Assembly: GCA_002696735.1 (NCBI GenBank) | Contig: NZSL01000007.1 | Location: forward strand, 345,347 to 409,346 | Source of the DNA: Methylophaga sp. | Lineage (GTDB): Bacteria; Pseudomonadota; Gammaproteobacteria; Nitrosococcales; Methylophagaceae | Direction of reading: 5' to 3' | Length of the DNA stretch: 64,000 bases | In this document: in pieces, positions 7,628 through 20,724 of the stretch | How the letters are laid out: each line of letters begins with the position of its first letter | How positions within the stretch are numbered: the first letter of the stretch is position 1 | The notes under the pieces: model-generated | Seen by the model: only the letters and a program-made list of their open reading frames with translations | The model's database searches: none | Told to the model about the DNA's origin: nothing | Position numbers and translations under genes: made by a program

Positions 7628-8077
7628 GACAGGTTCAATCTGCATCCCCACTCTGATTTGACCATCTGACAGAACATCGGCACGCAGTCCGGCTTTATGC
7701 GTAAATGCTTTGACGATAGCTTTTTTGCTTATGCTATCGTTTTCCAGTAATGCGCCCAAGGTAGAGCAGGGTTCACAAAGTTCTACGCCCTTGAAACTGA
7801 CATCGCCAATCCAAAAAACCTGTCCAACTAAATCGTTAAGACGGACGCCTTCGGTAATTACATTACGCCGGGTATCAGACAGACTAATCTGCTGCGAAAA
7901 ACGCTGATTAAACTCACTGATTTCTTCCTGTTCGATAAAGGTAATGTTCTGCCCCGGCCATTGGCTTCTGTCAAAATTACGGTCTCCTTTAATACCTTTA
8001 CCCGCAACCAGATTAATTTCCGGGACTTGTCGTTGCCCACCCAGATTTTCGCTTGCTGTAAAAATTGCTTTTATCAT
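7619..8077 (-). CDS. MOSC-domain protein
   Basis: The 152-residue protein contains the MOSC core (VAGKGIKGDRNFDR, QNITFIEQEE, RRNVITEGVRLNDLVGQVFWIGDVSFKGVELCEPC). MOSC domains are the sulfur-carrier C-terminal domains related to molybdenum cofactor sulfurases, and the Cys residues in LCEPC are the likely sulfur-binding site. It stands alone without a partner oxidoreductase. The substrate is unknown. Confidence 0.88.
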   Translation of the reverse strand: MIKAIFTASENLGGQRQVPEINLVAGKGIKGDRNFDRSQWPGQNITFIEQEEISEFNQRFSQQISLSDTRRNVITEGVRLNDLVGQVFWIGDVSFKGVELCEPCSTLGALLENDSISKKAIVKAFTHKAGLRADVLSDGQIRVGMQIEPVVK

Positions 8078-8111
8078 TTCGAAATTGCTTTACCTCCATT
8101 ATTAGCGAATC

Positions 8112-8143
8112 AAAAAAGGAGCATGCTTTCAGGCACACTCCTT
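8112..8143 (-). terminator. Terminator ending the chaperone/retron operon
   Basis: On the minus strand aaggag pairs with ctcctt, and inside it tgc pairs with gca, closing on a 6-base loop; a run of T follows the stem. It lies 250 bases beyond the Gln/Glu-rich gene and is the first terminator downstream of the sigma-54 promoter at 11.6 kb. Confidence 0.72.
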
Positions 8144-8390
8144 ATTTCAGGACGGGTCAATGAAACATTACTTCAACTGGGTAGCAAAGTGTTTATAAAA
8201 CTCCCTTTGAATCAAGTAAACTCTGCTAAAAACTTATACAGCATAAACGCCTTCTCGCAATAGACCCAAAGTCTTCCAGCAACATTTTTTTGTTCACCTT
8301 AAATACCATAATACATTTATCAAAATACAACTAAATCGATCAATCAGCGCTGTTAATTATCACGATCAATCTTTATCAGTTAGTTCTTAG
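8144..8390. other. Untranslated tail between the Gln/Glu-rich gene and its terminator
   Basis: No convincing gene is visible. Two direct copies of gattgatcg (minus strand, around 8335-8370) stand 17 bases apart. The only frame is about 27 codons long and lacks a ribosome site. Confidence 0.35.
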
Positions 8391-8765
8391 TCATCTCCAG
8401 AACTGCCACCATTTCTTGTTATTTTCACGTGACTGTTGTCCTTGCTGTGCTCCCTGACCCAACTCATTCTGTGTCTGTTGGTTTTTCATTTCACGCTGTT
8501 GATTCATACCCTGGTTTTCGTCCTGATGTTCGCGAAGTCTTTCACGATCCTGTTCTTTCATTTGCTCCTGTTGTTTGTTCCCCTGCTGTCCGCCCTCTTG
8601 TGTTTCATTGCGCATTTGTTCTTGTTGTCTTTCTTGCTCTCTAATTTGCTCAGACTGCTCATTCCTTTGCTGGTCTTTACTCGCTCCTTTTCCGGTTTCG
8701 CTCATACCTTGCAAAGGCCAAATAATCAAACTTGTCACTAAAATGCTGATATATAGTTTTTCCAT
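8391..8765 (-). CDS. Secreted Gln/Glu/Arg-rich low-complexity protein
   Basis: The 124-residue product begins with a signal peptide (about residues 1-22, LYISILVTSLIIWPLQGMS) and continues as nearly uninterrupted polar sequence dominated by Q, E, R, N and G, ending in the aromatic tail KKWWQFWR. The body is predicted to be disordered or a single charged helix. A good ribosome site (ataggag) precedes the ATG. The gene starts 26 bases after the reverse transcriptase stop, so it belongs to the same operon. I do not recognise a family and assign no function; an envelope role is suggested by the signal peptide. Confidence 0.75.
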   Translation of the reverse strand: MEKLYISILVTSLIIWPLQGMSETGKGASKDQQRNEQSEQIREQERQQEQMRNETQEGGQQGNKQQEQMKEQDRERLREHQDENQGMNQQREMKNQQTQNELGQGAQQGQQSRENNKKWWQFWR

Positions 8766-8791
8766 TTTGCTTCTCCTATGGGTTATCGGGT

Positions 8792-9886
8792 TTACACCAG
8801 CCTGTAAACATCCGCTAATTGATGTCGGTAGTTTTGTGCAAGTGACGGATCAATATCATGGACATAGGACAATACCCCGTCTAAATGCGCTTTGAATCCA
8901 TCAGTGGATAGAAAACCACGCTTTTGTGCGTGTTTCTGAAGACCAACATCAGAGTGGTTTAGATAGAAAATATGTTGACGAATATGGTTTCTAACCGATT
9001 TTTGTAGTCGAGGCTCTTCACCGTCGACTAATAGTCCGAGAACAATTTTTCTGGCGCCTGGCGTAATGATCTTGGTTTTAGTCATATTCGGTGACTGACC
9101 ATATGTTCGCATCAAGCGAAAAACTCGGTGAATAAAGGCCTTGGCCAGTTCTCGTGAAAAGCTCGTGAGTGGCGTTGAAAAACTGAGATCATCAGCGTAT
9201 CGACTGTAAGTTAATTGTTCTTCCGCGGCGAGATTCATGATCTTCCGGTCAAACGCCACCATGGCGAGATTAGATAATGCCGGACTAGTTGGTGCGCCTT
9301 GAGGCAAGTGGCCCATTCGCTGACCTTGATATTGACTGATAATAGTGGAGTTTCCCTCAATCTCCCATCTATGCCGATGCCGAAAAGCGGTCAGACTACC
9401 CAGCCGGGTACACAATCTTGCAAGTTCAAATGCTATCAACGGCTGGTAACCCAGACTGTAGAAAACCCGATAAACATCAATCTCGGAAATAGCACCAAAA
9501 AAATTATATAAATCGAGCTTTATTAACCAGCGGCAGCCACAGTGAACGCTAGCAGCATCGCGAATAGACTTTCCCTTCTGAAAAGCATAACTTACCGGAC
9601 TTGGCTGGGCCTGAGAAAGGATATGCCGATATATCCATTGTTGCACTTTGAGCAAACTTTCATCAGGTATGGCAATGATACGAAAGCCGCCTGATTTTTT
9701 CCTTATCCGGAATACTTTGTATGGTTCTGGTGACTGCCGGGTAATAATTTTCCTGAGATCGCGATAGCTGGTCTCAGTGAGGTCTGCAAGATGCTTTAGA
9801 CTCTTAATAGGCGGCAAACAATTACTCGAAGCAGATATTTCCTGCGAATCGTGAGTGAAAAATAACTGAGAGTGCTTTCGACCCAT
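8792..9886 (-). CDS. Retron-type reverse transcriptase
   Basis: The 364-residue protein has an RT core: the first catalytic Asp in LIKLDLYNFF (D125), LPQGAPTSP (194-202), the YADD box (230-233), and VLGLLVDG (282-289) at the place of the retron VTG motif. AASVH (111-115) corresponds to the retron NAxxH motif with N changed to A. There is no maturase, endonuclease or fused effector domain, so it is not a group II intron RT; the QGAPTSP box also excludes a diversity-generating RT. The gene follows a structured 225-bp gap, as expected of a retron with its msr-msd RNA. No strong ribosome site precedes the ATG. The retron subtype cannot be decided by eye. Confidence 0.88.
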   Translation of the reverse strand: MGRKHSQLFFTHDSQEISASSNCLPPIKSLKHLADLTETSYRDLRKIITRQSPEPYKVFRIRKKSGGFRIIAIPDESLLKVQQWIYRHILSQAQPSPVSYAFQKGKSIRDAASVHCGCRWLIKLDLYNFFGAISEIDVYRVFYSLGYQPLIAFELARLCTRLGSLTAFRHRHRWEIEGNSTIISQYQGQRMGHLPQGAPTSPALSNLAMVAFDRKIMNLAAEEQLTYSRYADDLSFSTPLTSFSRELAKAFIHRVFRLMRTYGQSPNMTKTKIITPGARKIVLGLLVDGEEPRLQKSVRNHIRQHIFYLNHSDVGLQKHAQKRGFLSTDGFKAHLDGVLSYVHDIDPSLAQNYRHQLADVYRLV

Positions 9887-9889
9887 CTA

Positions 9890-10048
9890 CTCAGACCCGA
9901 AAGGGGTAGGTGTCGTGACAAGCCAAGGAGGTAACGCCGCAGGTGCAGGCGCGACACGCTTAGCCACAAGCAAAGGCTTGCCCGAGAAGCTGAAGTAATC
10001 TCCGCCCCCACTTTTTTCAACAGAAAAAAGCGTAGTTAGTAAACTAAC
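9890..10048 (-). ncRNA. Candidate retron msr-msd RNA upstream of the reverse transcriptase
   Basis: The gap before the RT gene is packed with inverted repeats: gttag/ctaac (10035-10048), an 8-bp stem cttttttc/gaaaaaag with a 4-base loop (10011-10030), caagc/gcttg with a 4-base loop (9967-9980), and a long hairpin with arms gtgtcg/cgacac (9910-9957) holding an inner cgcc/ggcg stem. This order of short hairpins followed by one long stem is what an msr-msd looks like. I could not find a clean a1/a2 pairing of the two ends, the decisive retron feature; the best candidate is an imperfect pairing of the G-run near 10005 with acccc near 9905. The limits given are approximate. Confidence 0.45.
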
Positions 10049-10111
10049 ATGCACTAGATAAGTCATCCGGCACTCCCAGTTAATCCGTGAGAAGCCATGT
10101 GAATAATGTGT

Positions 10112-10567
10112 TTATCCATTAAGGAACTCGCTCTGGAAATACCCATGAAGATGTGCTTGGATTTCTTGTTTTTCCATCGCAACGAGATCTCTGGGTTTTT
10201 CCAGGATGATGTGTTTTTTTATGTTGGCTGGCATTAATTTGCGTAATTCACCTAAAAAATCAGGCGCGGCAAGAATCACAAGATTACCGAGACTCTGTGT
10301 CTCATATAGATCGCGCAAGAATCGGATAACGAGTGATGCAAATGCTACCTCATCATGATGTTTATGCGTTTCTGCTGTCTGATAATTGTGACTACCCCCT
10401 CCGCGAGACATAATTCTGCCTGGTGTATCAGAAGTCAGTTCCTGCTCTAACAAATGTCCGGTAGGATTTTTTATGTGTTTGATTTCAGACAGTGTCGCAT
10501 GTCGATTTTCAGCGCTGAACACTTTAGCTTCTGAAGCGTCCGCCACTAATACAGTCATCATTTTCAT
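10112..10567 (-). CDS. Host-attachment family protein (bacterial eRF1-like fold)
   Basis: The 151-residue product matches the family annotated as protein required for attachment to host cells, a bacterial relative of the eRF1 central domain: VLVADASEAKVF at the start, a Gly-rich SRGGGSH segment, and LVILAAPDFLGELRKLM near residue 115. Start at 10567 is chosen because aggaga lies eight bases upstream; a longer frame from a TTG would overlap the cbpM-like gene. The true role of this family is unclear, possibly ribosome or RNA related. It is the fourth gene of the chaperone operon and the last before the candidate retron RNA. Confidence 0.85.
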   Translation of the reverse strand: MKMMTVLVADASEAKVFSAENRHATLSEIKHIKNPTGHLLEQELTSDTPGRIMSRGGGSHNYQTAETHKHHDEVAFASLVIRFLRDLYETQSLGNLVILAAPDFLGELRKLMPANIKKHIILEKPRDLVAMEKQEIQAHLHGYFQSEFLNG

Positions 10568-10593
10568 ATTTCTCCTATAAAAATGCTCTTCTA

Positions 10594-10893
10594 TCAATCG
10601 ATCTGCAATCGCTCACGCAAACTATTTATTTCATCCAGTAACTCTATAGCTAGAGCAGCACCAGCCATATTCAATTCCAGATCACGACATAAGCGCATTG
10701 CAATATGGACTTTCCTAACACAATCAGTCTCATATAAAGCCTCATGATCGAGTATGGTCATAGCTGATGGTGTAATCACCCCATAATCGAGCATTTCTGT
10801 CAGTTTTTTTTGTGGCAGTCCACAACGGTTGCATATCTGTTTGAACGACAGCAAATGACTAATAGACTGATACACATCGATATCTGACTGCAA
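10594..10893 (-). CDS. CbpM-like chaperone modulator
   Basis: The 99-residue helical protein resembles CbpM, the MerR-like protein that inhibits the DnaJ homologue CbpA. It shows the usual pattern of an N-terminal helix-turn-helix-like part (SFKQICNRCGLPQKKLTEMLDYGVITP) and a C-terminal helix (NMAGAALAIELLDEINSLRERL). No cbpA gene is nearby. Here it follows hsp20 by 31 bases, so its partner may be the small heat-shock protein or a DnaJ encoded elsewhere. Confidence 0.8.
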   Translation of the reverse strand: MQSDIDVYQSISHLLSFKQICNRCGLPQKKLTEMLDYGVITPSAMTILDHEALYETDCVRKVHIAMRLCRDLELNMAGAALAIELLDEINSLRERLQID

Positions 10894-10924
10894 TTAACGC
10901 TAGCCTCTTAATGTCACTTCTCTG

Positions 10925-11356
10925 CTACTTTTCAACCTTGATCTCCAAAGGTTTTGCTTGAGCCTTTGCTTTTTTAGGTACAGTCAGTTCAAGAACACCA
11001 TCTGTTGTTTTGGCTTTTATCTTTTCCAGATTGGCAGCTTCAGGCAATGTAAAGCGACGCATAAAACTGCCACTAAACCGTTCAATGCGTTTGTAATTAT
11101 TCGACTGCTCACGTTTCTCAGATTCTCTTTCACCTTTGATAGTCAGAACATCATTTTCAACCGTGACTTTGATGTCTTCAGACTTTACGCCGGGTAAATC
11201 TGCTTTGATGACGAACTTGTCCTCTTCATCTGTAATATCTACAGCCGGAGACCATTCTTCGCTATCAAAGTTGGCTATCGCTGAACTGGGAAAGAAATTA
11301 CTCAGTTCACGCTGTAAATCATTGATTAAACTTAAGGGTTTGTATTGGCCAATCAT
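10925..11356 (-). CDS. Small heat-shock protein, Hsp20/alpha-crystallin family
   Basis: The 143-residue cytoplasmic holdase has the alpha-crystallin domain: WSPAVDITDEEDKFVIKADLPGVKSEDIKVTVENDVL then GERESEKREQSNNYKRIERFSGSFMRRFTLPE, and the C-terminal K-A-x-x-K-P region replacing the usual IxI motif. Such proteins bind unfolding proteins until DnaK or ClpB act. It is the second gene of a five- to seven-gene operon whose promoter looks sigma-54 dependent rather than sigma-32 dependent. Confidence 0.93.
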   Translation of the reverse strand: MIGQYKPLSLINDLQRELSNFFPSSAIANFDSEEWSPAVDITDEEDKFVIKADLPGVKSEDIKVTVENDVLTIKGERESEKREQSNNYKRIERFSGSFMRRFTLPEAANLEKIKAKTTDGVLELTVPKKAKAQAKPLEIKVEK

Positions 11357-11384
11357 CTCAGTATCCTCTGCTTGTTAAAGTTTA

Positions 11385-11579
11385 TTACTCAATTGACTGG
11401 TTGATAGTTCGCTCGGCTTCTAGCCAGTCGTCCAGCTCACGCTCACCATCAAAATTACGTTTCTCAGCAATGTAATAGGCTGCTTCTTCAATCATTTTAT
11501 GATGCGTTGTAGTAAATGCTTGGTTGCTGTCTGGTAATTGAGCCGAGGCATTTTTACTTTTTGTTTGTGTCTTTGCCAT
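11385..11579 (-). CDS. DUF2934 family small protein
   Basis: The 64-residue product contains the DUF2934 signature IEEAAYYIAEKRNFDGERELDDWLEAE, found in small stress-associated proteins of many Proteobacteria. The start at 11579 has ggag nine bases upstream; the longer frame to 11606 would run into the leader. It is the first gene after the sigma-54 promoter. The N-terminal 25 residues are polar and low in complexity. The function of the family is unknown. Confidence 0.82.
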   Translation of the reverse strand: MAKTQTKSKNASAQLPDSNQAFTTTHHKMIEEAAYYIAEKRNFDGERELDDWLEAERTINQSIE

Positions 11580-11620
11580 AGACTTTCTCCAGCATTGTGA
11601 AAACAACTTTTCTTAGAATA

Positions 11621-11638
11621 AGGCAAACAACATGCCTG
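11621..11638 (-). promoter_or_regulatory. Sigma-54 (-24/-12) promoter of the chaperone/retron operon
   Basis: On the minus strand the sequence aggcatgttgtttgcc keeps the invariant GG and GC exactly 10 bases apart (GG at 11636-11635, GC at 11624-11623), with GGCATG and TTGC matching the consensus TGGCACG-N4-TTGC at nearly every place. Transcription would start near 11611, about 32 bases before the DUF2934 start codon. A sigma-54 activator gene lies directly upstream. Confidence 0.78.
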
Positions 11639-11745
11639 TTTTTTATGTTATTGATAAGTATTATTTTTTTTCGAGCAAGCAGGAGAGTTAAGATAATGTC
11701 TGTCGAATAAATGAGTCATTTTGATGATGGAATATCTGAAGAAAT

Positions 11746-11761
11746 AAGGTAAATGTACCTT
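11746..11761. promoter_or_regulatory. Palindrome upstream of the sigma-54 promoter (second site)
   Basis: aaggta-aatg-tacctt is a perfect 6+4+6 palindrome about 110 bp upstream of the -24 element and 26 bp (centre to centre) from a second palindrome. Both share the core aaatgta, so it may be a weaker activator site. Confidence 0.4.
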
Positions 11762-11770
11762 CAAGCAAAG

Positions 11771-11788
11771 TGTCTACAAATGTAGACA
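11771..11788. promoter_or_regulatory. Palindromic candidate enhancer (UAS) for the sigma-54 activator
   Basis: tgtctaca-aa-tgtagaca is a perfect 8+2+8 palindrome 135-152 bp upstream of the -24 element, the usual distance for enhancer-binding proteins. It lies 28 bp past the activator stop codon and has no T-run on either side, so it is not a simple terminator. Confidence 0.6.
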
Positions 11789-11815
11789 GCTGATGAATTT
11801 TTTATACATCCTCAA

Positions 11816-13150
11816 TTAATGACCAAGGCCATGTTTGTTCATAAGCCGATATAGCATTGCTCTGGAAATACCGAGATGATTAGAGGCTTTACTCACATTG
11901 CCTTCATCCCTTTCCAAAGCGTCAATAATCGCCCGTCTTTCGGTTTCTTCTTTTATAGCCTTAAGTCTTTGTGTTCGTGGTTTGGTGTCGGTTAATTCAA
12001 TGCCTAAATCATCGCTTTGAAGTTCTTCACCATCGCACATAATGACGGCTCTTTGTATTCGATTCATCATTTCACGGATATTGCCATGCCAAGCATAGCT
12101 TTTCATCATCGCAAGGCAATCTGATGAGAAACCACTGAACTGCTTATGATGTTCTGCTGAGAATTTATTCAGAAAATAATAAGCCAATAATTCGATGTCC
12201 TGCTGGCGATCTCTAAGGGGGGGTATTTTGATTTCAAGCACATTCAGCCGATAAAAAAGATCCGCACGAAATCGTTCTCGATACATCGCTCTCTCCAGAT
12301 CAACATTTGTAGCGGCAATTACCCGAACGCGGACTTTTACTGTATCAACACTGCCCACCCGTTGAATGGTTCCCTCTTGCAGAAAACGCAGGAGGTTTGC
12401 TTGTTGTTCAAAAGCCAGCTCCCCGATTTCATCAAGCAGTAACGTGCCGTTGTCAGCGGCTTCAATGAAACCTTTTTTTTGCTGATTAGCACCGGTGAAG
12501 GCTCCCTTCTCATAACCAAATAACTCTGCCTGAATCAGGCTATTGGCGATACCACCGCAATTTACTGCGATAAAAGGTCCTGATAAATCTGACATTTCAT
12601 GCAGAGCTCTGGCAACGAGCTCTTTGCCTGTTCCGGTTTCACCCGTAATCAATACGGTGCAGTCTACGCTTGAGGCTTTTTTAATAGCTTGTTTTAAATC
12701 ATTGATTAGCCGGCTATGGCCCAGAAGAACTCTGTCAAAAATAAGATTGTCTGGGTGATCACAGGCCGAAGACATTATTTTGGCCTGCTCCAGCATGTTT
12801 GATAGCTGCATCTGTGTCAGGGGAAACAGATGATAATCATCAAAATAATTGCGCAGAAGCGATTTTATGGAAAGCTGTTCCAATAACGCCGAGGGTACCA
12901 AAGCCAACCACTTGATTTTTGATGCGGTAATAAAAGCTTTTAATCGGTCTAGGTTATCCAGCTGAGGATCATACTCACTGAAATCGACCAAGCCGATGGA
13001 GCCAGTGTGAAAAGATACTGGAGAATCCGCATGACTATTAAGGTCAAAAGTTACCACATGCCATTTAAGGTGTTTTAAATACGTGATGATAGGTTCAGAC
13101 TCCTTTCTAAACCTAATAAAAATTAATGGCTTAAAAAATTTGTTTTTCAT
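11816..13150 (-). CDS. Sigma-54-dependent activator with VpsR-like N-terminal domain
   Basis: The 444-residue regulator has an N-terminal receiver-like domain without a clear phospho-acceptor pocket (VpsR-like, residues about 1-125), a complete AAA+ domain with Walker A GETGTGKE, the sigma-54 contact loop GAFTGA, and Walker B LLLDEIGEL, and a Fis-type helix-turn-helix (GNVSKASNHLGISRAMLYRLM) at the end. The start at 13150 has a very strong ribosome site (ggggggagga) four bases upstream. Vibrio VpsR is c-di-GMP responsive; two diguanylate cyclases are encoded in this window. It most likely drives the operon starting at 11579. Confidence 0.88.
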   Translation of the reverse strand: MKNKFFKPLIFIRFRKESEPIITYLKHLKWHVVTFDLNSHADSPVSFHTGSIGLVDFSEYDPQLDNLDRLKAFITASKIKWLALVPSALLEQLSIKSLLRNYFDDYHLFPLTQMQLSNMLEQAKIMSSACDHPDNLIFDRVLLGHSRLINDLKQAIKKASSVDCTVLITGETGTGKELVARALHEMSDLSGPFIAVNCGGIANSLIQAELFGYEKGAFTGANQQKKGFIEAADNGTLLLDEIGELAFEQQANLLRFLQEGTIQRVGSVDTVKVRVRVIAATNVDLERAMYRERFRADLFYRLNVLEIKIPPLRDRQQDIELLAYYFLNKFSAEHHKQFSGFSSDCLAMMKSYAWHGNIREMMNRIQRAVIMCDGEELQSDDLGIELTDTKPRTQRLKAIKEETERRAIIDALERDEGNVSKASNHLGISRAMLYRLMNKHGLGH

Positions 13151-13432
13151 TCCTCCCCCCCTACTACTCGATAACACAGAGCAAGAAGCAGCGTGTTTCA
13201 AATGAAAGGACGAAACAGACTCAAATTAATTATAAGAGCAAATTTATTATTTGCTAATGATCTACTTGCATTAATACAGCAACGATCTGAAGTTCACGAT
13301 GAACTTAGCTGCAGTTTTATTATTTCACTGGGAATACAGACTTATATTGATATAGATCAAAAGAAATGTAATAGCTGAAACAATTTATAATTCAGTCAAT
13401 TATCAATAATATTTAATACGCATTTTTGATAT

Positions 13433-13689: not shown

Positions 13690-13717
13690 GACAAAAAACA
13701 GCCCCCAGCAGGGGGCG
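13690..13717 (-). terminator. Terminator downstream of tmm
   Basis: A 6-bp GC stem gccccc/gggggc (13701-13716) with a 4-base loop is followed on the minus strand by tgtttttt. It lies about 170 bases past the tmm stop. Confidence 0.8.
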
Positions 13718-13884
13718 AGGAAAAAACAACAGGTATTAATATTCCATCCAGTTTTTATGATTGGATTATCTTAGAGCTTAGTCCAACCATCAAATCGATC
13801 ACAAATAGCTCACCATTTTATCGATCATATTAGTTAACAAACTTATCCTATCCAATTGAATTAAAATAAAAAAGTTTATTAGGC

Positions 13885-18399: not shown

Positions 18400-20724
18400 A
18401 TGTTAGAACTGCAACAACAACAATGGGGGAAAGATTATTTTTTCACTTCCCCCTCAGAGAAGGTTATCAAACACTATCGATTAGCGGGGCATCAAGCGAT
18501 AAAACTCTCGCTGTTGGCTGGCGATAAACTGGCAATATCCAGTCAGGATAAAGCGCAGAACAGTGAACTTATCGTATTGAATTCCAATGGCAAATCGGCG
18601 CCAGAGCTCCTGGATAACCGCCCCCCTGTTCCAGCAGTGACTATCAAACAACAGCTTGAACAGACAGGGGCAGCTGCAGAACAATTACGTGGTCAATTGG
18701 CAAACTGGCAAATTGATTCGAGCCATCTTGAGCAGGTTCTATCTATCTCAGGGTCAGAGACGGCAAATTTAACAGCGCTCAACGAGCTTAACGTCATCAT
18801 CGTCGCGGCGGGTGCAAAAATGACGGTGGATCAACAGTCACCGGTGACAGAGATTGATATAAAAGTCACCTACGTCGAACCCAACAACGATTCATTGCCG
18901 GAGCCTTTAGGCCCGATTAAATCCGAGTTGCGAATCCCTCTCGCCTCAGCAAAAACCTATGAAGTCCAGAAAGGCGAATGGATCCAGATTATCGATGTTC
19001 ATGGTAAGCAATGCTCCGACTTTGTCGCCTTTGATAAACAAGCCTTGGAACAGGGCATAGAAGTTGGTCTTGATGCGACCGCAACCCGGACGGTGATGGG
19101 CTTGAGTAATCCGGTTCCCGGTCTAAACTCACGTTTTCTGGGAACCGATCTGTTATCGATGGTGGAAGTGGTACAGGATACCGTCGGTCGTCATGACAGT
19201 TTCCTGTTGGCCTGCACACCAAAATACTACGACGACAACGGTTATTTTGGACATATCAGCTGCACCGAGAATTTTAACCGGGTACTGGCACCGTTTGGCA
19301 TCGCTCCACGTGCCGGCTGGCCAGCGATCAACTTATTCTTTAACACGGCGATTGATGATTCAGGTGCTGTCTTTATGGATGAACCCTGGTCGCGTGCTGG
19401 CGATTATGTATTGTTTCGCGCCGATCGGGATCTTATCTGTGCCTCATCGGCCTGTCCGGATGATATTGATCCGGCCAATGGCTGGCAGCCCACCGATATT
19501 CATGTGCGTATTTATGGCGCCGAACAGAATTTTCCCCGCGCCATTGCCCATCGAACCACTTCTGAGGAGTTACCTCGCATGACCAAAGCATCCGGTTTTC
19601 ATAACCGAACTTCTGAACTGACCAAAAAATTTATCGACTATGCCGGCTATTGGGTCGCCAATGAATACGATGGTTGGGGAGCCAATGCAGAATACCTGGC
19701 CTGTCGTGAACGAGTAGCGGTGCTGGATTTATCAGCATTACGTAAATTCGAAGTGGTCGGCCCGGACGCCGTGGCCTTTTTACAATATGTATTAACCCAG
19801 AATGTCAGCCGCATGGCGATTGGCGAAATTGCTCACTCAGCAATATGTCTGGAAACCGGCGGCATGATTGATGACGGTACTATTTTCCGGATGGGTGAAC
19901 AAGCCTATCGCTGGATATGCGGCGCGGAATATACCGGTGTCTGGATGCGGGAAAAAGCTGAGCAAAAAGGTTTTAAAGTCAGTATTCGCAATGCAACTGA
20001 ACAACTGGATAATCTGGCAGTACAAGGGCCGAAAAGCCGCGAATTACTAAGCGAAATAGTCTGGACTTCGGACAGCCAACCCAGTGTGGAAAAACTCAAA
20101 TGGTTTCACTTCACCATTGGTCGTCTTAGTGGACCGTCTGGCATTCCGGTGATGATTTCACGAACCGGTTATACCGGTGAGCTAGGGTATGAAGTCTGGT
20201 GCCATCCGGATGATTCACCGGCCGTATGGGATGCTGTCTGGCAAGCCGGTCAGGCTTATGATATTGCGCCTATGGGTTTTGATGCGCTGGATATATTGCG
20301 TATAGAAGCTGGTTTAAGTATGGCTGATCATGAATTTACCCATGAAATCACACCATTTGAAGCCGGCACCGGATTCAGTGTGCCACTCGATAGTAAACAA
20401 GAAGACTTTATTGGCCGTGACGCACTGGCCCGTCAAGCTCCTGCAAGTCGTCATAAACTAATGGGCATGCTGCTTGAAGGAGGCGATCCTGCGGCACATG
20501 GAGATCACGTATATAGCGGCCGATTCCCGGTAGGCATTGTGACCAGTGCGACGTATTCGCCGTTAATGGGTAAGCAGCTTGCCATGGTTAGAGTCGCTCC
20601 CGACTTTGCACATATTGGTAAGCGACTTGAAGTCGGAAAACTGGATGGCCAGCAGAAGCGACTTGCTGGTGAACTGGTTAAGTTACCGTTTTATGATCCC
20701 AAGCGTGGGAAGCTGCTTTCCTGA
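18400..20724 (+). CDS. tdm: Trimethylamine N-oxide demethylase (Tdm), DUF1989-GcvT fusion
   Basis: Tdm splits TMAO into dimethylamine and formaldehyde, the step after Tmm. The 774-residue protein has an N-terminal extension, a DUF1989 domain (about 170-380) and a GcvT-like tetrahydrofolate-binding domain (about 400-770, with GYTGELGYEVW and the GcvT_C segment FPVGIVTSATYSP). D207, C272, C288 and C352 lie at a spacing that matches, from memory, the metal ligands reported for the Methylocella enzyme (each shifted by nine). The tmm neighbour supports the call. The formaldehyde formed can be passed to tetrahydrofolate by the C-terminal domain. Confidence 0.93.
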   Translation: MLELQQQQWGKDYFFTSPSEKVIKHYRLAGHQAIKLSLLAGDKLAISSQDKAQNSELIVLNSNGKSAPELLDNRPPVPAVTIKQQLEQTGAAAEQLRGQLANWQIDSSHLEQVLSISGSETANLTALNELNVIIVAAGAKMTVDQQSPVTEIDIKVTYVEPNNDSLPEPLGPIKSELRIPLASAKTYEVQKGEWIQIIDVHGKQCSDFVAFDKQALEQGIEVGLDATATRTVMGLSNPVPGLNSRFLGTDLLSMVEVVQDTVGRHDSFLLACTPKYYDDNGYFGHISCTENFNRVLAPFGIAPRAGWPAINLFFNTAIDDSGAVFMDEPWSRAGDYVLFRADRDLICASSACPDDIDPANGWQPTDIHVRIYGAEQNFPRAIAHRTTSEELPRMTKASGFHNRTSELTKKFIDYAGYWVANEYDGWGANAEYLACRERVAVLDLSALRKFEVVGPDAVAFLQYVLTQNVSRMAIGEIAHSAICLETGGMIDDGTIFRMGEQAYRWICGAEYTGVWMREKAEQKGFKVSIRNATEQLDNLAVQGPKSRELLSEIVWTSDSQPSVEKLKWFHFTIGRLSGPSGIPVMISRTGYTGELGYEVWCHPDDSPAVWDAVWQAGQAYDIAPMGFDALDILRIEAGLSMADHEFTHEITPFEAGTGFSVPLDSKQEDFIGRDALARQAPASRHKLMGMLLEGGDPAAHGDHVYSGRFPVGIVTSATYSPLMGKQLAMVRVAPDFAHIGKRLEVGKLDGQQKRLAGELVKLPFYDPKRGKLLS

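What the first reader, a model, noticed from the sequence alone, without database searches (positions are those of the whole stretch)
8112..13150. Sigma-54-controlled operon joining protein-quality-control genes to a retron-type reverse transcriptase
From one GG-N10-GC promoter at 11621-11638 runs an uninterrupted minus-strand series: DUF2934, Hsp20, CbpM-like, host-attachment (eRF1-like), candidate structured RNA, retron-type RT, secreted Gln/Glu-rich protein, then a terminator at 8112-8143. No terminator or opposing gene breaks it. Retrons are normally known as stand-alone anti-phage modules with an effector; here the RT appears to be part of a stress or chaperone transcript with no recognisable toxin. 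This could be a stress-induced RT system, or a defence unit placed under an alternative sigma factor. The gene order and promoter are seen; the joint function is inference.
Basis: partly seen in the sequence, partly recalled or inferred. Interest (0 to 1): 0.75.

Follow-up and report, generated by a model that had tools for sequence, protein, structure and literature searches.

The report
Toxin-less retron in a stress operon
A retron, a bacterial DNA-copying immune module, here lacks the effector (toxin) gene found beside its relatives and sits instead behind genes for chaperones and a predicted ribosome-pausing protein that are likely switched on together under stress, which would make it a stress or defence response without cell suicide.

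Summary
The RT (9886-8792, minus strand) scores as a type III-A retron RT (532.7 bits). The 'candidate structured RNA' is a retron ncRNA: a covariance model built from relatives only has one hit in the window, this one (43.8 bits). In 31 of 32 related loci a PRTase effector gene is present, and in the 22 I folded the ncRNA's closing stem uses that gene's last codons. No PRTase was found in the window's genome. Its place is taken by DUF2934, Hsp20, a CbpM-like protein and an eRF1/Balon-like domain, yet the stem is kept. Upstream lie a sigma-54 activator gene, a palindrome found once in the genome, and the GG-N10-GC site (by sequence alone no better than chance). Seven sister genomes show the empty site: the block split a cupin gene whose remnants have decayed while RT and chaperone frames stayed open. 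A second Methylophaga probably carries activator and RT on one contig. Replacement of the PRTase has one precedent in print (Retron-Sda1), where the RT was not needed for defence. Co-transcription, msDNA and any functional tie between RT and chaperone genes are untested. A new variant of a known kind: strong anatomy, open function.

The parts
13739..13846 (-). Decayed 5' remnant of the cupin gene split by the block
   Evidence: 111 of 351 CDS bases of the L258 cupin gene covered, 5 indel events, 85 matches and 22 mismatches (alignments)
13229..13257 (-). Sigma-70-like promoter before the activator gene (consensus match only)
   Evidence: TTAGCA-17-TATAAT, 10 of 12
11816..13150 (-). Sigma-54 activator: VpsR-like N-terminal domain, AAA+ domain, Fis-type HTH
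   Evidence: Pfam Sigma54_activat 216.1 bits, VpsR 48.6, HTH_8 40.4
11771..11788 (.). Perfect palindrome, candidate activator binding site
   Evidence: One exact place in the window and in the whole genome, 0 in the reversed-pattern control
11622..11637 (-). GG-N10-GC site, candidate sigma-54 promoter
   Evidence: Two mismatches to TGGCAYRNNNNTTGCW; such matches are not in excess in the window
11385..11579 (-). DUF2934 protein
   Evidence: PF11154 43.3 bits; start codon read from sequence
10925..11356 (-). Hsp20 small heat-shock protein
   Evidence: PF00011 98 bits
10594..10893 (-). CbpM-like MerR_2 protein
   Evidence: PF13591 66.4 bits; NCBIfam CbpM model below its cut-off, 46.1 against 138
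10112..10567 (-). Host_attach/baeRF_12 protein: predicted eRF1/Balon-like core domain, in the place where relatives have the PRTase effector
   Evidence: PF10116 111.3 bits, PF18856 91.6; fold match to Balon E 1.3e-7 with a modest model, pLDDT 69.2
9863..10083 (-). Retron ncRNA with closing a1/a2 stem (a1 10082-10070 pairs with 9875-9863 inside the RT gene)
   Evidence: MFE -91.1 kcal/mol, z -4.75; covariance model hit 10008-9884, 43.8 bits, E 1.2e-10; coordinates
8792..9886 (-). Type III-A retron reverse transcriptase, YADD motif present
   Evidence: PADLOC RT_III-A 532.7 bits; RT model pLDDT 87.7
8391..8765 (-). Q/E-rich, secreted-looking hydrophilic protein
   Evidence: Residues 24-124: 27.7% Gln, 14.9% Glu, GRAVY -2.5; no family above a curated cut-off
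8168..8250 (-). Decayed 3' remnant of the split cupin gene
   Evidence: 84 of 351 CDS bases covered, 3 indel events
8116..8143 (-). Intrinsic-terminator-like hairpin, inherited from the cupin locus
   Evidence: same hairpin in the L258 and L259 spacers

Best explanation
This is a type III-A-derived retron core (structured ncRNA with its closing stem plus an RT with its catalytic motif) that lacks its family's PRTase effector and forms the 3' part of a likely sigma-54-transcribed operon of DUF2934, Hsp20, a CbpM-like protein and a predicted ribosome-binding, Balon-like domain. Shown by sequence: the gene order, no PRTase match in the genome, the conserved ncRNA, the block sitting inside a split cupin gene, and open frames beside decayed cupin remnants. 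Inferred: the adjacent VpsR-like activator binds the palindrome and drives the GG-N10-GC promoter under some stress; one transcript yields chaperones, the ribosome factor, ncRNA and RT; the RT makes msDNA. Most speculative: the new upstream partner has taken over as the retron's output, so the response would be protection or translational standby, not suicide.
For: RT_III-A 532.7 bits. PRTase present in 31 of 32 related RT loci; four scored, 315-421 bits. PRTase profile: no match in the window's genome, match in 4 of 4 carrier genomes, one of them (L035) not in the profile. ncRNA: z -4.75, CM 43.8 bits, 11 of 11 held-out retron loci and 0 of 12 control loci hit. Unique palindrome, rpoN. Empty site in 7 of 7 sister loci that span the junction. 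8 indels in 195 bases of cupin remnant against an open RT frame.
Against: Sigma-54 site not above chance by sequence. No expression data. The eRF1-like search listed no homologue from the second Methylophaga record, so the cassette may not be a fixed partner of the RT. In 6 of 28 sequences 13 or more of 27 non-cognate a1/a2 pairings were as strong as the cognate one. The eRF1-like model is of modest quality. In the closest precedent, Retron-Sda1, defence did not need RT or ncRNA (PMC12548924 section 10).
Confidence: 0.55

Rival explanations
1. Shared transcript only: the chaperone cassette works alone and the retron core is a maintained passenger that makes msDNA for a role of its own, as beside HipA/DUF3037 in Retron-Sda1.
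For: Sda1 precedent: defence unaffected by loss of ncRNA or RT activity (PMC12548924 section 10). eRF1-like plus Hsp20 neighbours are common without any retron (PMC10901736 passages). No eRF1-like homologue listed for the second Methylophaga record.
Against: RT frame and ncRNA kept open while adjacent remnants decayed, so the core is under selection if it came with the block; activator and RT probably share a contig in a second species.
Confidence: 0.3
2. The RT and its ncRNA are transcribed from their own promoter and are independent of the sigma-54 unit.
For: The ncRNA follows the eRF1-like stop codon by 28 bases, room for overlap with an upstream promoter; promoters of other types were not covered by the scan.
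Against: No sigma-70-like site on the minus strand between the GG-N10-GC site and the RT; same strand, short gaps, and only one strong hairpin terminator at the end.
Confidence: 0.1
3. A decaying retron remnant left without its effector.
For: Effector gene gone; the RT's N-terminal extension is shorter than in PRTase-bearing loci (motif at residue 28; 41-44 in 24 loci rows where the motif was found, 59 in L103 whose start was called upstream).
Against: Full-length frame with the family's invariant residues by construction of the alignment, confident fold, intact ncRNA, relatives at 69-77% identity, two of which share the same short N-terminus.
Confidence: 0.05

Closest known systems
Type III-A retron (RT, ncRNA, PRTase/winged-helix effector)
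   Same: RT family, ncRNA with a1/a2 stem, position of a partner gene just upstream of the ncRNA
   Different: No PRTase in the genome; RT N-terminus shortened; unit headed by a sigma-54 activator and chaperone genes
Retron-Sda1 (PMC12548924; section 10 read)
   Same: Type III-A RT and ncRNA whose PRTase has been replaced by other genes
   Different: There the newcomers are a HipA kinase and DUF3037, a stand-alone defence pair; here they are chaperone and ribosome-factor genes with no known toxin and a likely sigma-54 promoter
Balon / baeRF stress operons (PMC10901736 and PMC6514570; passages)
   Same: eRF1-like gene next to Hsp20; core domain without GGQ; best fold match is Balon
   Different: Only a core domain (151 aa; the Balon chains matched are about 360), so not Balon proper; retron core and sigma-54 control are additions

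Membership tests
Type III-A retron | RT of the III-A clade | tested here: met
   RT_III-A 532.7 bits, next model 256.2; tree places it inside the group of RTs from PRTase-bearing loci, though its nearest rows P0005, P0007, P0010 have unknown context
Type III-A retron | Structured ncRNA with a1/a2 stem directly upstream of the RT | tested here: met
Type III-A retron | PRTase/winged-helix effector | tested here: not met
   No match in the genome at E 10; 4 of 4 carrier genomes match
Type III-A retron | msDNA made in the cell | not testable with these tools
   Needs nucleic-acid extraction from the native host
Sigma-54-dependent operon | -24/-12 element | tested here: inconclusive
   GG-N10-GC present, but 44 such matches in the window against 47.7 expected
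Sigma-54-dependent operon | Adjacent enhancer-binding protein and upstream palindrome; rpoN in the genome | tested here: met
Sigma-54-dependent operon | rpoN- and activator-dependent transcription | not testable with these tools
   No expression data at hand
Balon ribosome hibernation factor | Three-domain aeRF1-like architecture | tested here: not met
   151-161 aa and one matched domain, against chains of about 360 aa
baeRF-1 clade, core-domain families | RNase H-fold eRF1 core domain, catalytic Gln usually absent | tested here: met
   PF18856 91.6 bits; fold match (modest model); no GGQ string in the protein

The most novel reading that the evidence does not exclude
A retron that has exchanged suicide for dormancy: the RT-msDNA complex gates a Balon-like ribosome-pausing protein made from the same sigma-54 stress transcript as the chaperones, so that phage or stress sensing leads to reversible translational standby with protein protection.
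Probability: 0.15. Interest if true: 0.85.

Novelty: new variant of a known kind. Interest (0 to 1): 0.62.

Why it matters
Retrons are understood as suicide systems in which RT, RNA and DNA hold a toxin in check. A retron core that appears selected yet has no recognisable toxin, is wired to a likely stress promoter, and starts just behind the gene that replaced the toxin, would show that the sensing half can be recruited into cellular stress biology. It also offers a testable reason why a replacement at a type III-A locus can keep the old effector's 3' end: in the loci folded here those codons are the a1 strand of the ncRNA.

Tried and rejected
Rfam scan of 8000-13300 gave no retron family; its only hit was a snoRNA model below its cut-off. 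A single-sequence scan of genome contigs found no relative; the alignment did. Window chaperone and activator proteins against the 192 loci then held (L001-L192): at E 1e-5 Hsp20, CbpM, DUF2934 and activator matched only loci of the window's own genome. Four genus relatives have a full-length activator homologue; no Hsp20, CbpM, DUF2934 or eRF1-like match lies in the stretches around them (L218-L221, E 1e-3); two were read for their frames. Repeats at the block borders: none resembling transposon ends (the two borders were searched separately, so repeats shared between them were not tested). PRTase remnants in the window: none convincing (best E 0.012, at 19414, far from the locus). Class-wide RT search: 369 genomes, 10 matches at E 1e-20 including the window's own; the other 9 are 30-37% identical and their short loci show no PRTase match. 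dN/dS was not possible: no DNA of the 69-77% relatives. The 59-aa frame 10066-9887 is taken as ncRNA: no match in Pfam, PADLOC or NCBIfam. Contig listings of the eRF1-like search were not used as proof of absence, since even the window's own protein is listed there with a short contig.
Full report
1. What is there. On the minus strand, from 13150 to 8391, run a sigma-54 activator gene (VpsR-like domain, AAA+, Fis HTH), DUF2934, Hsp20, a CbpM-like MerR_2 protein, a Host_attach/baeRF_12 protein, an RNA-coding stretch, an RT and a Q/E-rich secreted-looking protein. The scan lists no terminator-like or sigma-70-like site on that strand between the GG-N10-GC site and the RT start. The sigma-54 site alone is not above chance (44 matches, 47.7 expected). 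Its support is positional: the activator gene ends 178 bases before it, a perfect 18-base palindrome lies between, that palindrome (spacer 0-4) occurs at one place in the 3.3-Mb genome with none for the reversed control, and rpoN is present.

2. The RT is type III-A. PADLOC's best model is RT_III-A at 532.7 bits, the next 256.2. 2498 homologues passed; among the best 120, which are all that is listed, three besides the window's own share 69-77% identity and the others 56% or less. A tree of 46 sequences puts the window RT and those three in one clade (100/100), inside the group that holds the RTs of PRTase-bearing loci; the rows nearest to the clade, P0005, P0007 and P0010, have unknown context. 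AlphaFold gives a confident RT fold (pLDDT 87.7).

3. The effector is missing. I took the 32 loci with RT at 36-50% identity (L020-L047, L100-L103). 31 of 32 hold a PRTase match, directly upstream of the RT where the layout was drawn; the exception, L040, begins 57 bases before the RT match, and the L042 match is partial (28 of these loci supplied the query proteins themselves). Four PRTases were scored: PRTase_III-A, 315-421 bits. A PRTase profile finds nothing in the window's genome (99.99% complete) and finds its gene in 4 of 4 carrier genomes; three of the four are in the profile, L035 is not (E 2.7e-43). In the window the eRF1-like gene stands in the PRTase's place.

4. The ncRNA is intact. 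With the closing stem the RNA folds at -91.1 kcal/mol, z -4.75, 0 of 200 shuffles as low. A covariance model from 9 relatives, window left out, has one hit in the window, 10008-9884, 43.8 bits, E 1.2e-10. The model hits 11 of 11 held-out retron loci at the RT start (weakest L032, E 0.019) and 0 of 12 non-retron loci. In 22 of 22 folded loci a1 bases lie inside the PRTase gene (6 at the least, L028) and pair mostly with the first codons of the RT (6 of the 28 loci were dropped, L039, L043, L046, L101, L102, L103, because the frame caller misplaced the RT start or made the genes abut; that call has no shuffled control). As a control, cognate a1/a2 duplexes average -36.3 kcal/mol against -27.1 for non-cognate ones, sd 7.0, in 28 sequences. 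The signal is uneven: in 6 of 28 no non-cognate pairing is as strong, in 6 of 28 thirteen or more of 27 are. The window's cognate duplex is -36.0, with 2 of 27 non-cognate ones as strong. The window keeps a1 at 10082-10070, paired with 9875-9863, although no PRTase gene is left to encode it.

5. One block, not recent. Nine other genomes of the genus have the tmm gene. Eight stretches were fetched (G013 was not); one ends inside tmm (L262). In the other 7 tmm is followed by MOSC after 454-476 bases. The spacer of L258 and L259 encodes an intact 116-aa cupin (Cupin_3 in L258). In the window the cupin gene is split: 111 CDS bases at 13846-13739 and 84 at 8250-8168, with 8 indels in 195 bases. At that rate a neutral RT of the same age would carry about 45 indels; its frame is open. 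This assumes that the RT came with the block.

6. A second species. The activator homologue P0130 (73%, without the VpsR-like domain) and the RT homologue P0002 (77%) are both listed with longest contig 33353, sources ncbi, uniref and nr, and the label Methylophaga sp.. Most likely they share a contig; its DNA could not be read. The eRF1-like search gave six proteins, none with that label, so the cassette there may differ. Of 24 genomes of the genus and 57 of the family searched, only the window's own has a close match to this RT; the best other in the family is E 2.9e-19.

7. The eRF1-like protein. Pfam calls Host_attach and baeRF_12. A modest model (pLDDT 69.2; the other four models 46-67) matches Balon first in the PDB (E 1.3e-7, TM 0.60 by query); eRF1s follow. 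The protein has no GGQ. Core-only baeRF proteins are proposed to be non-catalytic ribosome binders (PMC6514570, passages), and Balon genes often adjoin Hsp20 (PMC10901736, passages). So the cassette reads as a proteostasis and translation-standby operon; that is inference.

8. Mechanism and rivals. Likely: stress activates the VpsR-like activator, sigma-54 transcribes the whole unit, and the RT makes msDNA. Whether msDNA acts on the eRF1-like protein is open. Retron-Sda1 is the warning: there the PRTase was replaced by HipA/DUF3037, and defence did not need RT or ncRNA (PMC12548924, section 10). That paper notes that the replacement's C-terminus resembles the old effector; my reading is that the a1 strand may enforce this.

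9. In print. Ten searches of the paper library, of which I saw listings and abstract beginnings, showed no retron in a chaperone or sigma-54 operon. I saw no statement that the III-A a1 strand lies in effector codons, but beyond those listings I looked for it only in PMC12548924 (passages). The library lacks most subscription papers.

Noticed in passing
L020-L047, L100 (coordinates): In type III-A retrons of this family the 5' strand of the ncRNA closing stem lies in the last codons of the PRTase gene and the 3' strand in the first codons of the RT, which may account for the conserved W-x-PQ start of the RT.
   Followed up: partly
P0129, P0130, P0132: Close homologues of the activator (60-73%) lack the VpsR-like N-terminal domain, leaving a PspF-like AAA+ plus HTH protein.
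   Followed up: no
L042:7494-7889: A partial PRTase match (140 aa, 42%) beside an RT with open frame: possibly a second type III-A locus with a damaged effector gene.
   Followed up: no
L025:3400-5984 and L030:3408-6210: Both loci share two further neighbour genes that look, by eye and recall, like an OLD-type ATPase and a UvrD-like helicase, as in Gabija.
   Followed up: no
G000:C9:140529-140954: The window's genome holds a second Hsp20, 58% identical to the block's.
   Followed up: no
window 13701-13716: A GC-rich terminator-like hairpin lies just inside the activator-side border of the block.
   Followed up: no
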